Of a DNA stretch of 37,864 bases, positions 11,522-17,135 are shown in pieces. The notes beneath the pieces are model-generated. The model worked only from the letters and a program-made list of their open reading frames with translations. It did not search any database and was not told where the DNA came from. The DNA lies in IMG/VR virus record IMGVR_UViG_3300043434_000386, positions 1 through 37,864 of that record. One strand, written 5' to 3'. The stretch is from a virus. A program made the translations under genes and the position numbers. Positions within the stretch are counted from its first letter, which is position 1. Each line of letters starts with the position of its first letter.

Positions 11522-11553
11522 AAAACCCAATTAATTGATATTAATTGGGTTTT
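11522..11553 (+). terminator. Terminator whose loop is the -35 box of the next promoter
   Basis: 13-bp perfect stem AAAACCCAATTAA / TTAATTGGGTTTT (11522-11534 / 11541-11553) with a 6-base loop TTGATA at 11535-11540. The right arm ends in TTTT. The loop is exactly the -35 hexamer of the following promoter. Confidence 0.85.
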
Positions 11554-11563
11554 GTGTTATAAT
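11535..11563 (+). promoter_or_regulatory. Sigma70-type promoter of the secreted protease gene
   Basis: -35 TTGATA (11535-11540), 17-base spacer, -10 TATAAT (11558-11563) with an extended TG at 11555-11556. The gene's ATG (11592) has AGGA at 11582-11585. Confidence 0.82.
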
Positions 11564-11591: not shown

Positions 11592-13676
11592 ATGAAATTC
11601 AAACTTACTCTTGTAGCAGTAGCAGTTTCTACTTTATCGCTGAGCACACAAGCCCAGATTTTCACTAATCGAGAAGCAGAAACACAGACAAAGTTCTTGA
11701 CGGCTGTGGGTGCACCACAAGCATGGGCACGTGGTATTACAGGTAAAGGTGTGATCATCGGCATCGTAGACAATGGATTCGATGCCAATCACAGTGATCT
11801 CAAAGGCAAAGTGCTCGGTGTCACTAATACTGGTGCAACAAAAACAGCAGTAGGCGTACACGGTACACAGATGGCCAGTATTGCCGCAGGTAAGTTGGAT
11901 GGCTGGGGTACGGTTGGCGTCGCACCCGATGCCCAACTAGTGTTGTTTCAAGCAAATAGTTCAGTTAGTTCGTCTACTGGTCTTGCAGGCCCAGGTATTA
12001 ACATGGATGCAGTGCTTCGAGGTATGACTCTGGCAGAAAAGGCAGGAGCCAGTGTTATTAATCTTAGCCTAGGCTCGAACTACGACCCTACATTTATTAA
12101 AACAACTGTAGAAGTCAGTCCTGGAATTTTTAGAGCACCCAATAATTATAACAGTGCGGTTACCGGTGGTAAAAGTTACCTCTATGGTACTACAATGAAG
12201 TCCGTGGCGGCATTTGCCAATGCTACTTCTACACCAGTGTTGGTTGTCGCATCAGGTAATGCAGGTACTGGTTATGCACAGATGCCAGCGGCATTCGCTA
12301 CACAAACCGATGCCAATGGCAACTTGCTCATGGGTGGTCGTGTATTGATTGTTGGCAACGTAGTAGGTGATGGTAAGGGCGGCTGGACTATGAACGCCAA
12401 CAGCAATCGTGCAGGTACATTATGTAACAGTTTTACAGGCAATGTCTGCAACGACAAATATTATGTCAAAGATTTTTATGTTGTAGCACCGGGCACAGGC
12501 ATGCTGGGCGCAGTACCTGACGCAGGCAGGTCTGCCGCAGGTATCAAGTCAGGTGGCACTAACGGTATTGGCAGTGTCAGTGGTTCAAGCCCAGCCGCCG
12601 CTGTGGTAAGTGGCGGTGTGGCATTGCTCAAGCAGGCATGGCCGCAACTTAGTTCGGCACAGATTGTGCAATTGGTAAAAACAACTGCCACTGACATGGG
12701 TAAACCAGGTGTAGACGAAGTCTACGGTTATGGTATGGTGAACTTTGATCGTGCAACTCAGCCACAGGGTTTGCTTAAAATTGCCGACTTCAAAGGTTAT
12801 AATAAAGCTATTCCGCTAACAGCTTCGGGTGTTGCATCCAGTGGTAGTGCGAGTCTTAAAACCAGTAGTGTTCTTCAAAACGTACAAGGCTTAGATAGTT
12901 ACAACCGCAATTATACACTGGACATGACTCGTGCGGTGGTTGCTAATCCGGTTATGACATATCGCAGTTCTAGTTCCTACCTGGCACTGAACTCTGCGTC
13001 TTACAATGAAGTTTCCGTTCCGGTCAATGACAACTACAGCTTCAAACTTATGCAAAGTCAAGCAGGTTTTGCAACTGAAGTAACTCACAGTGATAACAAT
13101 ACCAGCTACAGTATGCAGTTTGGTTCTATGACAGAAAAGTCAGGTTTCCTTGGTAACTATGGCGCAGGTGCTTTGGCATTTGGCGACAGCGGCACCAGTT
13201 ATCTGCAACTAGGCACTGAACAAAAGTTTGGTGATCTAGCGGTATTTGGTAGTTATGGTTTTGGTAGCACTCGAGCAGGAAGTGTGCAAGATAGTATGAT
13301 CCAACTTGGTAATCGCATTAGCAGTGACACTTGGAGAATGGGTGTTGCTAAGAACAATGTATTTCAAAATAAAGACTCGCTGAGCTTTACTGTAGTTCGT
13401 CCGGTAAGTGTACGCAGTGGTTCAGCAACCGTAACTGGTGTAACTGGCTACGAGTTTACTGACAATGGCGATGGTGCCGATGCCCATGCCATTGTCAGCA
13501 CCGAAACAATCAGCTTGCGAGCACAAACGAAACCCATTGACTTGGTGCTTGGTTATACCGTATCTGGTCGAGGCTATGATCGAGTTAATGTAAACATTGC
13601 CAAACAATTTAACGTAGGCGGCGTTGCAGGTAACAGTGCCTATGGTGTAGGTGTTATGGCAGTTAAATCGTTTTAA
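11592..13676 (+). CDS. Secreted subtilisin-like (S8) serine protease with barrel-like C-terminus
   Basis: 694 residues. A signal peptide is clear: MKFK, a hydrophobic stretch (LTLVAVAVSTLSLS), then AQA before Q23. The S8 domain spans about 35-395 with the triad D60 (IGIVDNGFD), H90 (GVHGTQMA), S333 (GSSPAAAV, in place of the usual GTSMAAP) and oxyanion N223 (ASGN). The last 290 residues are beta-rich with alternating pattern and end in a terminal Phe (VMAVKSF), as in autotransporter or outer-membrane barrels, so the protease may be displayed on or released from the host surface. Secreted proteases are unusual in T4-like phages. It sits between two stem-loop promoter cassettes, next to a lipoprotein, consistent with an acquired accessory gene. 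Start ATG 11592; the frame's upstream TTG at 11535 is the -35 box. Confidence 0.9.
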   Translation: MKFKLTLVAVAVSTLSLSTQAQIFTNREAETQTKFLTAVGAPQAWARGITGKGVIIGIVDNGFDANHSDLKGKVLGVTNTGATKTAVGVHGTQMASIAAGKLDGWGTVGVAPDAQLVLFQANSSVSSSTGLAGPGINMDAVLRGMTLAEKAGASVINLSLGSNYDPTFIKTTVEVSPGIFRAPNNYNSAVTGGKSYLYGTTMKSVAAFANATSTPVLVVASGNAGTGYAQMPAAFATQTDANGNLLMGGRVLIVGNVVGDGKGGWTMNANSNRAGTLCNSFTGNVCNDKYYVKDFYVVAPGTGMLGAVPDAGRSAAGIKSGGTNGIGSVSGSSPAAAVVSGGVALLKQAWPQLSSAQIVQLVKTTATDMGKPGVDEVYGYGMVNFDRATQPQGLLKIADFKGYNKAIPLTASGVASSGSASLKTSSVLQNVQGLDSYNRNYTLDMTRAVVANPVMTYRSSSSYLALNSASYNEVSVPVNDNYSFKLMQSQAGFATEVTHSDNNTSYSMQFGSMTEKSGFLGNYGAGALAFGDSGTSYLQLGTEQKFGDLAVFGSYGFGSTRAGSVQDSMIQLGNRISSDTWRMGVAKNNVFQNKDSLSFTVVRPVSVRSGSATVTGVTGYEFTDNGDGADAHAIVSTETISLRAQTKPIDLVLGYTVSGRGYDRVNVNIAKQFNVGGVAGNSAYGVGVMAVKSF

Positions 13677-13677
13677 A

Positions 13678-13684
13678 ATAAATA
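13678..13684 (+). promoter_or_regulatory. Putative late promoter core ATAAATA
   Basis: AAATAAATATAAAT starts at the stop of the protease gene and ends 20 bases before ATG 13705, with AAAGG as ribosome binding site between. It would allow late expression of the lipoprotein separately from the protease. Confidence 0.45.
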
Positions 13685-13704: not shown

Positions 13705-14859
13705 ATGAAAAATATTTTTGCTTTGTCTACAATTGCTTTATTGATAACAGCCTGCGGTGGAGGTGGTAGTGCGGGCACGATTACCCCTCCTGTATCAGCT
13801 AATTACTGTGATGTCAATCAACAAGTTCTTAGTAAGATCAACACAGCACCCATTTATACTTTTCGTGGTCTAACCAGTAGCTGGGCTAATCAGGATAGTG
13901 TACCAGGTGCTCGAGAAGGCGAATGGTTCACTATTGCAGTTATCCATGCATCCACTGTAGCGTCTAAGACAAACGATATTGAACTTAAAAAGAATATTGT
14001 TGATAATTTATACATCTGGGCAAATGCAGACGCATACACAGGTACTTATAAATGTTATGTTGCAAGCAAACCGTTTAATGGTGGTACAGCGGCCTGGAAT
14101 CCTGTTTGTACCCAGTGGACCGTAGATGCTGGCACGGATCTATCAGCGATACAAGATGGAAACTATGTTGGAGAAAAAGTCAACGCTATACGCAGGGCTT
14201 ATGCACTTATTTCACCCTGGGCCAAAGTGCAGGAGCCAGCTAAACATGCCAGAATTAAACAATGGTTGGATTATTGGATTGAATACACGCCACAGGCAAA
14301 TGACGTATATTTTGGCATGGGCATGGGAAGGTATCACCATCAAATGCAAATCGCAGAGGATAATGGCAATCTTGCAGAAGCCAAGAATCTTGCTACTAGA
14401 CTAATGGCAGGTATAGTGCCCTTGGTCAAGGCAGATGGATCTATAGTAGATCGTACAACACGCGGTGACCGCGGACTGTGGTATCACTATGCGTCTTTGA
14501 ATGAAATTACAACGTCTGTTCATCTTGCTAAAAGATATGGTGCGACAGTGCCTGCGGAATTAGAAAAGAATCTACATACGGCAATATCATTATTTTTAAA
14601 TACTCTGGATAATCCTGCATATATTCTTCCCTGGGCCAGTATAGGACATAATAACGGTGGTGATGGTACCAACCAAAACTTTAATTTCTCTACTTGGTTC
14701 GATGATCCCTATGGTGGAAATTGGATTTATTTGTATGCACGTTGGTATCCAGATCATGAAAATACAAAACGATTACAAGCAAAAGTACCTTATGGTAATG
14801 CTAAATCAGAAGCACTAGACATACAGTTTGGAGAAGGATTAGGATGCACAACATCCTAA
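13705..14859 (+). CDS. Lipoprotein with alginate-lyase-like domain
   Basis: 384 residues. A lipoprotein signal is clear: MKNIF, hydrophobic stretch, lipobox LITAC with C17, then a Gly/Ser linker. From about residue 145 the sequence resembles the alpha/alpha-barrel alginate lyase family (PL5-type): AIRRAYALISPW, then GMGRYHHQMQIA (Y210-H211-H212), DGSIVDRTTRGDRGLWYHYASL (DGS at 244-246, R253, R256, Y260, H261) and ITTSVHLAKRYG. The basic and aromatic residues fall where the family keeps its catalytic His, Arg and Tyr, but the usual NNH motif is not conserved, so activity and substrate are uncertain. The protein would be anchored in the host envelope. A terminator follows it. Likely acquired from a bacterium together with the protease. 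Confidence 0.8.
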   Translation: MKNIFALSTIALLITACGGGGSAGTITPPVSANYCDVNQQVLSKINTAPIYTFRGLTSSWANQDSVPGAREGEWFTIAVIHASTVASKTNDIELKKNIVDNLYIWANADAYTGTYKCYVASKPFNGGTAAWNPVCTQWTVDAGTDLSAIQDGNYVGEKVNAIRRAYALISPWAKVQEPAKHARIKQWLDYWIEYTPQANDVYFGMGMGRYHHQMQIAEDNGNLAEAKNLATRLMAGIVPLVKADGSIVDRTTRGDRGLWYHYASLNEITTSVHLAKRYGATVPAELEKNLHTAISLFLNTLDNPAYILPWASIGHNNGGDGTNQNFNFSTWFDDPYGGNWIYLYARWYPDHENTKRLQAKVPYGNAKSEALDIQFGEGLGCTTS

Positions 14860-14861
14860 AC

Positions 14862-14887
14862 AAAAAGGCTACTTTGGTAGCCTTTTT
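14862..14887 (+). terminator. Rho-independent terminator after the lipoprotein gene
   Basis: 11-bp stem AAAAAGGCTAC / GTAGCCTTTTT (14862-14872 / 14877-14887) with loop TTTG and a built-in T-tract. It abuts the -35 box of the uvsW promoter. Confidence 0.9.
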
Positions 14888-14889
14888 CA

Positions 14890-14918
14890 TTGACTTTGTT
14901 TAATAATAAATGTATAAT
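14890..14918 (+). promoter_or_regulatory. Sigma70-type promoter of uvsW, 5 bases before its ATG
   Basis: -35 TTGACT (14890-14895), 17-base spacer, -10 TATAAT (14913-14918). ATG 14924 follows after 5 bases, where transcription would be expected to begin. No ribosome binding site is present, so the mRNA is probably leaderless. Confidence 0.8.
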
Positions 14919-16415: not shown

Positions 16416-17135
16416 ATGTTTATAAACAACAAGTACAAAAGATGGTATGATTCTATAATATCCAATGCAATGATTAAAAATTTAAGTACCATCGATGAAT
16501 ATACTGAAAAACATCATATTATACCTCGCTCACTTGGTGGAAATGATAATGATACAAATTTAGTAGCATTAACTGCAAGAGAGCATTTTATTTGTCATAT
16601 GCTATTAATTAGGTTTGTAGAAGGGATATACAGGAAAAAGAAAATGCAACATGCATTGGGAATGTTTATTCAAAATAATAAAAAACAAAATCGAATTTTA
16701 ACTTCTAGACAATATGACCTTGCAAGGAAAAATATAAGTTCTGCCAGAATTGGTTCAGTAGTACGCAGTGAAACAAAAGATAAAATTAGTAAAAGTTTAA
16801 AAGGCAACATACCTTGGAATAAAGGACTGATCGGAGTTATAAAGCATTCAGAAGAATCAAATAAAAAACGATCAGAAACATTAACAGGCAAAACTTTTGT
16901 AGATCGATATGGAGAAGATAAAGCAAAAGAAGTAAAAGAAAAATTATCTGAAATAAAAAGAGGTAAACCATCTGGTATGGCAGGTAAACATCATTCTAGT
17001 GAAACAAAAAAATTAATGAGTAAAAATATGAAAGGACCTCGAGGTCTGCAAACAAGGATAGATATCTGTCCTTGTTGTAATGAAAAAAATGTTACAAGTC
17101 GCCATATTAAATTTTGCAAAGAGAGAAATAAATGA
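16416..17135 (+). CDS. HNH homing endonuclease, free-standing
   Basis: 239 residues, paralogue of the HNH protein at 941-1603. HNH core at about 31-62: H33-H34 (HHIIP), N48, H57 and H61 (AREHFICH). The C-terminal half has NUMOD3-like repeats (SEETK/SETKDKISKS, HSEESNKKRSE, HSSETKKLMSKN) and ends in a small zinc-finger-like motif, CPCCNEKNVTSRHIKFC. It lies between the intact uvsW gene and the 17132 gene, which it overlaps by ATGA. Its codons are more A/T-rich than those of its neighbours, a sign of separate origin. It has a good ribosome binding site and its own late-type promoter motif. Confidence 0.88.
   Translation: MFINNKYKRWYDSIISNAMIKNLSTIDEYTEKHHIIPRSLGGNDNDTNLVALTAREHFICHMLLIRFVEGIYRKKKMQHALGMFIQNNKKQNRILTSRQYDLARKNISSARIGSVVRSETKDKISKSLKGNIPWNKGLIGVIKHSEESNKKRSETLTGKTFVDRYGEDKAKEVKEKLSEIKRGKPSGMAGKHHSSETKKLMSKNMKGPRGLQTRIDICPCCNEKNVTSRHIKFCKERNK

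What the first reader, a model, noticed from the sequence alone, without database searches (positions are those of the whole stretch)
13705..14859. Phage-encoded lipoprotein with an alginate-lyase-like domain
Lipobox LITAC plus a domain with the PL5-like GRYHHQ and DGS...RG-x-R...WYHY segments. Phage depolymerases are usually tail proteins; one with a lipoprotein signal would sit in the host envelope. Paired with the secreted protease, it suggests a two-gene surface-remodelling module acting during infection or at lysis.
Basis: partly seen in the sequence, partly recalled or inferred. Interest (0 to 1): 0.75.

Follow-up and report, generated by a model that had tools for sequence, protein, structure and literature searches.

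The report
Exported alginate-lyase-like phage lipoprotein
A giant bacterial virus carries a gene for a sugar-polymer-cutting enzyme that looks built to be exported and fixed in the infected cell's outer envelope rather than mounted on the virus tail, and its relatives keep swapping such exported surface proteins in and out of one genome slot.

Summary
The ORF (13705-14859, 384 aa) is real and its relatives are under purifying selection. It has a lipoprotein signal (LITAC-GGGG) and a C-terminal Alginate_lyase domain (PF05426, just over cut-off). A 12-sequence AlphaFold2 model (pLDDT 68) has alginate lyases, mostly PL5, as its 26 best PDB matches. Profile comparison with bacterial PL5 gives E about 1e-11; shuffled controls give nothing. 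R253 and Y260 align with the PL5 catalytic Arg/Tyr. H211/H212 do not fit: H211 is Gln in one relative, H212 is Trp in the others, and no Asn-His dyad is invariant. I call it PL5-like, not PL5. Lyase and upstream subtilase form one transcription unit here, but the pair is not conserved: a sister phage has subtilase and terminator without the lyase. In other relatives the lyase sits in the neck operon, in a slot that is empty in what appears to be the window's own phage and elsewhere holds other exported proteins, including an unrelated polysaccharide lyase behind nearly the same signal peptide. Best reading: an exported, envelope-anchored acidic-polysaccharide lyase from an exchangeable surface-effector cassette. 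Activity and purpose (release or superinfection exclusion) are untested.

The parts
11522..11553 (+). Inverted repeat aaaacccaattaat[TGAT]attaattgggtttt overlapping the promoter; possible terminator of the upstream gene and/or operator
   Evidence: A stem of 10-16 pairs at this place in most of 21 subtilase loci, with paired changes between loci
11535..11563 (+). Sigma-70-type promoter TTGATA-17-TATAAT, extended -10
   Evidence: 11 of 12 consensus matches; a like promoter at the same place in 17 of 21 subtilase loci
11592..13676 (+). Exported S8 subtilase (694 aa) with putative outer-membrane C-terminal domain, first gene of the unit
   Evidence: PF00082 2e-29; best PDB hit 8e7f extracellular serine protease 1e-22, which I take to be the Serratia Ssp autotransporter; D60/H90/S333 invariant and C-terminal Phe in all 21 aligned; barrel itself not identified by Pfam
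13705..14859 (+). PL5-like (alginate-lyase-like) lipoprotein gene, 384 aa
13705..13755 (+). Lipoprotein signal peptide, lipobox I14-T-A-C17, Gly at +2
   Evidence: sequence; lipoboxes in relatives L111, L114, L116, L122, L140 and in distant family 2
14422..14619 (+). PF05426-matching segment (residues 240-305), including R253 (14461-14463), Y260 (14482-14484) and H261
14862..14887 (+). Intrinsic terminator AAAAAGGCTACTTTGGTAGCCTTTTT, shared with the lyase-free sister phage
14890..14918 (+). Promoter-like TTGACT-17-TATAAT of the following UvsW helicase gene

Best explanation
The gene encodes an exported uronic-acid polysaccharide lyase of PL5-like alpha/alpha-barrel fold. Sec exports it and the lipobox Cys is lipidated, so it is anchored in the host envelope (outer membrane most likely, since +2 is Gly and not Asp). 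There it cleaves acidic exopolysaccharide or capsule by beta-elimination using Y260 and R253, thinning the polysaccharide of the infected cell so that progeny escape and diffuse; removing glycan receptors is the next most likely benefit. In this phage it was inserted behind a conserved exported subtilase with its own sigma-70-type promoter. In relatives it occupies an exchangeable slot for exported surface proteins in the neck/tail operon. Shown by computation: ORF, lipobox and export-signal conservation, fold-level and profile-level PL5 kinship, Arg/Tyr conservation, purifying selection, operon layout, empty sites, slot exchange. Inferred: lipidation, location, enzymatic activity, substrate, timing, benefit.
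For: Fold: the 26 best PDB structural matches are alginate/polysaccharide lyases, nearly all PL5 (Smlt1473, AlgL, PanPL, A1-III), then 3nnb and PL38, prob 1.00, TM to 0.66. Profile-profile E 7e-12 over 296 columns; reversed and six column-shuffled controls prob at most 0.2 percent. R253 and Y260 keep the A1-III R239/Y246 spacing of 7 and are invariant in all 14 aligned members of both phage families. dN/dS 0.03-0.11 among relatives. Cys117, Cys135 and Cys381 invariant across both families, fitting an oxidising compartment. Lipobox in six family-1 lineages and in family 2; the others have a cleavable-type signal peptide. Same slot in L175 holds an unrelated polysaccharide lyase (PF14099, 1.2e-23) behind a 24/25-identical signal peptide. 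One-unit operon with promoter and terminator.
Against: No invariant Asn-His dyad, which PL5 uses beside Tyr/Arg; two alignments put Val201 where the His should be, so catalysis may be altered or lost. Model confidence is moderate (pLDDT 68, residues 114-151 and 312-323 below 50) and TM-scores are only 0.5-0.66. PF05426 score is barely over cut-off. FG-GAP propellers and a beta-lactamase-family protein share the slot, so the slot is not purely glycan-cutting. Host, substrate and expression timing are unknown.
Confidence: 0.6

Rival explanations
1. Superinfection exclusion: the lipoprotein removes or masks surface glycan that kin phages need as a receptor, like an enzymatic counterpart of T5 Llp. 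Fast turnover of the slot would then reflect phage-phage competition.
For: Phage lipoproteins of the Llp/Cor kind exclude superinfection (PMC9586334). The window gene is behind a strong sigma-70-type promoter and may be made early. Slot content differs between phages whose terminases are 98-99 percent identical.
Against: Relatives carry the gene inside the neck/tail operon, overlapping the upstream gene, which suggests late expression. Llp is a small binding protein and this is a 384-aa enzyme-like fold. No receptor known.
Confidence: 0.2
2. Auxiliary metabolism: lyase, exported protease and (in relatives) phage porins feed the infected cell with oligouronides and peptides.
For: Exported subtilase in all covered relatives and Porin_4 genes upstream of the neck operon in G031 and G041. 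Viral alginate lyases of family PL6 have been proposed as metabolic genes (PMC12285232).
Against: No uptake transporter or uronate pathway gene seen in the window; the two porin genomes have an empty neck slot. Not tested on complete genomes.
Confidence: 0.1
3. Non-catalytic glycan-binding relic: PL5 fold kept, activity lost with the Asn-His pair.
For: No Asn-His dyad; H211 is Gln in L112. Slot-mates include FG-GAP propellers, which need not be enzymes.
Against: Arg, Tyr and following His invariant across two distant phage families; strong purifying selection. Plasmid-borne PL5-like homologues with NNL instead of NNH exist, so His may be dispensable in part of the family.
Confidence: 0.15
4. 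Virion-borne tail depolymerase.
For: In relatives the gene lies among neck, sheath and tube genes.
Against: Lipobox or signal peptide in every complete member; no tail-fibre or trimer domain seen; in this phage the gene lies outside the structural operon.
Confidence: 0.05

Closest known systems
PL5 alginate/polyuronate lyases (Sphingomonas A1-III, Pseudomonas AlgL, Stenotrophomonas Smlt1473, Pandoraea PanPL)
   Same: Alpha/alpha-barrel fold, DGS..R-x6-Y segment, catalytic Arg and Tyr positions, exported
   Different: About 11-16 percent identity in the structural alignments; no Asn-His dyad; lipobox; Trp/Cys-rich segment (residues 114-151); encoded by a jumbo phage
PL38 alginate lyase (Bacteroides ovatus BoPL38)
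   Same: Next-best fold group after PL5
   Different: Weaker structural score; no sequence match seen
Phage tail-spike depolymerases
   Same: Phage-encoded surface-polysaccharide degradation (inferred)
   Different: Exported lipoprotein rather than a virion tail part; alpha/alpha barrel rather than the usual beta-helix (the latter from general knowledge)
Viral PL6 alginate lyase of estuarine viruses (PMC12285232)
   Same: Virus-encoded alginate-lyase-type gene
   Different: PL6, aligned there to PL6 enzyme structures; different fold and viruses
T5 Llp and Cor superinfection-exclusion lipoproteins (PMC9586334)
   Same: Phage-encoded lipoprotein acting from the host envelope
   Different: Small plug-jamming proteins, not an enzyme fold

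Membership tests
PL5 polysaccharide lyase | Alpha/alpha-barrel fold | tested here: met
   Top 26 PDB matches are alginate lyases, mostly PL5, then PL38, TM 0.5-0.66; model pLDDT 68
PL5 polysaccharide lyase | PF05426 above gathering score | tested here: met
   23.1 vs 22.2 bits; a PF05426 match at E up to 0.1 in all six A1 members
PL5 polysaccharide lyase | Catalytic Arg and Tyr (R239/Y246 of A1-III) | tested here: met
   R253/Y260, same spacing, invariant
PL5 polysaccharide lyase | Asn-His dyad (N191-H192 of A1-III) | tested here: not met
   No invariant Asn-His pair in 12 sequences; aligned positions read N/D-V, though that stretch falls in a gap in other alignments
PL5 polysaccharide lyase | Beta-elimination of mannuronate or other polyuronate | not testable with these tools
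   Needs an enzyme assay
Bacterial lipoprotein | Basic n-region, hydrophobic stretch, lipobox Cys | tested here: met
   MKNIFALSTIALLITAC, pattern test
Bacterial lipoprotein | Lipidation and membrane anchoring | not testable with these tools
   Needs labelling or fractionation
Phage tail depolymerase | Virion tail component without signal peptide | tested here: not met
   Export signals in all complete members
Superinfection-exclusion lipoprotein | Blocks adsorption of kin phages | not testable with these tools
   Needs an adsorption assay
Subtilase autotransporter (neighbour gene) | S8 triad plus C-terminal outer-membrane barrel | tested here: inconclusive
   Triad residues and terminal Phe conserved, 8e7f best PDB hit; no barrel model matched in Pfam

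The most novel reading that the evidence does not exclude
This jumbo-phage lineage has a dedicated, rapidly exchanging locus for host-exported surface effectors: export modules (lipobox, or signal peptide plus two repeats) recombined with different cargo (PL5-like lyase, PF14099 lyase, FG-GAP propeller, beta-lactamase-family hydrolase). Infected cells would thus be re-equipped on the outside by the phage, with a PL5-like enzyme branch that works without the Asn-His dyad.
Probability: 0.4. Interest if true: 0.8.

Novelty: new variant of a known kind. Interest (0 to 1): 0.62.

Why it matters
Phage polysaccharide depolymerases are mostly studied as tail parts acting before entry. An exported, envelope-anchored lyase would act from the infected cell, during replication or at lysis, and would make biofilm matrix or capsule a target of phage gene expression. 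The exchangeable slot gives a handle for finding more such exported phage effectors by position alone, and the missing Asn-His dyad makes a testable question about PL5 chemistry.

Tried and rejected
Pattern scans of genome contigs with the protein and with the family alignment gave no bacterial relative. Phage and plasmid tblastn with the window protein gave nothing. Single-sequence AlphaFold was useless (pLDDT 41). BFVD fold search gave nothing at E 1e-3. First motif scan was one base out of register and returned chance hits; the corrected scan found a second lyase family. T4-type late promoter before the lyase: only TATAAAT at 13683, also found inside genes, not pursued. Assembly chimera rejected: subtilase, terminator and UvsW are syntenic with the lyase-free sister. 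Recent duplication from the neck copy judged unlikely: the window lyase is equally distant (48-52 percent) from all neck lyases, which are 58-99 percent alike among themselves. Phage Y5 PL5 hit lies in a record marked UNVERIFIED and unannotated; not relied on as phage evidence.

Full report
What is in the window. The window is an IMG/VR virus record of 37,864 bases. Its genes are those of a large T4-type myophage: terminase, UvsX, UvsY, UvsW, primase and helicase, ribonucleotide reductase. The terminase is closest to Pseudomonas jumbo phage PA5oct and its relatives, at 55 percent. The ORF at 13705-14859 is open and complete.

Export. The protein starts MKNIFALSTIALLITAC-GGGG. It was the only one of 48 plus-strand ORFs of at least 80 aa that passed a lipobox test. 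Relatives have either a lipobox (L111, L114, L116, L122, L137/L140) or a small lipoprotein gene followed by a signal-peptide form with two repeats (L108-L110, L112, L113, L118, L120). Three cysteines are invariant across both lyase families, as one would expect outside the cytoplasm.

Fold and family. Pfam PF05426 passes its cut-off narrowly. The family profile finds Smlt1473 at 0.006 and A1-III at 0.03 in the PDB (7fi2 named as Smlt1473). A 12-sequence AlphaFold2 model reached pLDDT 68 and pTM 0.66. Its 26 best structural matches in the PDB are alginate or polysaccharide lyases: PL5 enzymes, one entry deposited simply as an alginate lyase (3nnb), and PL38. Against an alignment of PL5 proteins gathered mostly from plasmids, hhalign gave 97.5 percent, E 7e-12, locally and 98.8 percent globally, while reversed and column-shuffled versions gave at most 0.2 percent.

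Active site. R253 and Y260 keep the spacing of A1-III R239 and Y246 and are invariant, as is H261. Y222 of Smlt1473 and Y246 of A1-III are the reported catalytic tyrosines (PMC9655155). H211 is Gln in L112 and H212 is Trp in all close relatives aligned. No Asn-His pair is invariant anywhere in the family, and two alignments put Val201 at the His position; others leave that stretch in a gap. Whether the placed residues form a pocket could not be measured, because no coordinates are returned. Three plasmid-borne PL5-like proteins have NNL in place of NNH (L157, L159, L161). I therefore file the protein as PL5-like and not as a PL5 member.

Operon and empty site. A promoter of 11/12 matches lies at 11535-11563, inside an inverted repeat kept in many relatives, and a terminator at 14862-14887. 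They bracket the subtilase and the lyase. In contig G006, whose UvsW is 94 percent identical, the subtilase stop is followed at once by the same terminator and UvsW. The lyase is thus a single-gene insertion (or its loss in the sister), and the lyase-protease adjacency was seen only here.

The other location. In every relative that has the lyase it lies about 10 kb upstream of the terminase, between phrog_11903 and the head-tail adaptor phrog_211, followed by what I read by eye as tail sheath and tube genes. In lyase-free genomes G031 and G041 these two genes are about 50 bases apart. Contig G017 shares 6,115 bases with the window at 100 percent and extends upstream; its neck slot is empty too. 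So the window phage appears to carry the gene only beside the subtilase, as far as these contigs show.

An exchangeable slot. The neck slot holds, in different relatives: PL5-like lyases (12 distinct sequences), FG-GAP propeller proteins (L172, L174, L176), a PF14099 polysaccharide lyase lipoprotein (L175) and a beta-lactamase-family exported protein (L177). The export modules are homologous across cargo at DNA level: 81 percent over 342 bases (L172/L113), 85 percent over 327 bases (L176/L120), 85 percent over 74 bases (L175/L116), after which similarity stops. Two unrelated polysaccharide-lyase folds behind nearly one signal peptide is the strongest indirect support for a glycan-cutting role.

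A second family. A motif scan found lipoprotein lyases in another group of large phages, near a gene that looks by eye like a T4-type DNA polymerase, with PF05426 at 1.2e-8. Exported PL5-like lyases are therefore not a one-off.

How it most likely works. The protein is secreted by the host Sec pathway, lipidated at C17 and sorted to the outer membrane. It trims the host's acidic polysaccharide by beta-elimination. Release and dispersal of progeny is my preferred benefit because relatives carry the gene in a virion operon; superinfection exclusion is the main rival, favoured by the promoter arrangement in this phage. Each of these last steps is inference. Literature searches in the held library found a viral PL6 lyase (PMC12285232) and T5 Llp (PMC9586334) but no exported PL5-like phage lyase; that is a limited search and not proof of absence.

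Noticed in passing
L167:4588-5490 (+), L168:11897-12913 (-): Porin_4 outer-membrane porin genes (1.2e-25, 6e-37) just upstream of the neck operon in related jumbo phages; they look betaproteobacterial by eye, a hint to the host.
   Followed up: partly
L172, L174, L175, L176, L177 neck slot: Interchangeable exported proteins (FG-GAP propellers, PF14099 lyase, beta-lactamase-family hydrolase) sharing export modules with the lyase.
   Followed up: yes
L126, L131-L133, L135, L136, L141, L142: A second, distant family of lipoprotein PF05426 lyases in another large-phage group, without counterpart in the annotated phage collection.
   Followed up: partly
window 11522-11563: Inverted repeat containing the -35 box of the subtilase promoter, conserved with paired changes in many relatives; terminator, operator or both.
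   Followed up: partly
window 11592-13676: Subtilase resembling an autotransporter protease, conserved in every covered relative of this lineage and ending in Phe; unusual as a near-core phage gene.
   Followed up: partly
window 16416-17135: HNH-type gene (by eye) between UvsW and its conserved neighbour, absent at the same place in the close relative L164.
   Followed up: no
L157, L159, L161: Bacterial PL5-like proteins with NNL in place of the catalytic NNH, one annotated as mannuronate-specific alginate lyase.
   Followed up: no
L155 (Pseudomonas phage Y5, OQ572407): A PL5 gene much like AlgL in a record marked UNVERIFIED and unannotated; possibly host DNA.
   Followed up: no
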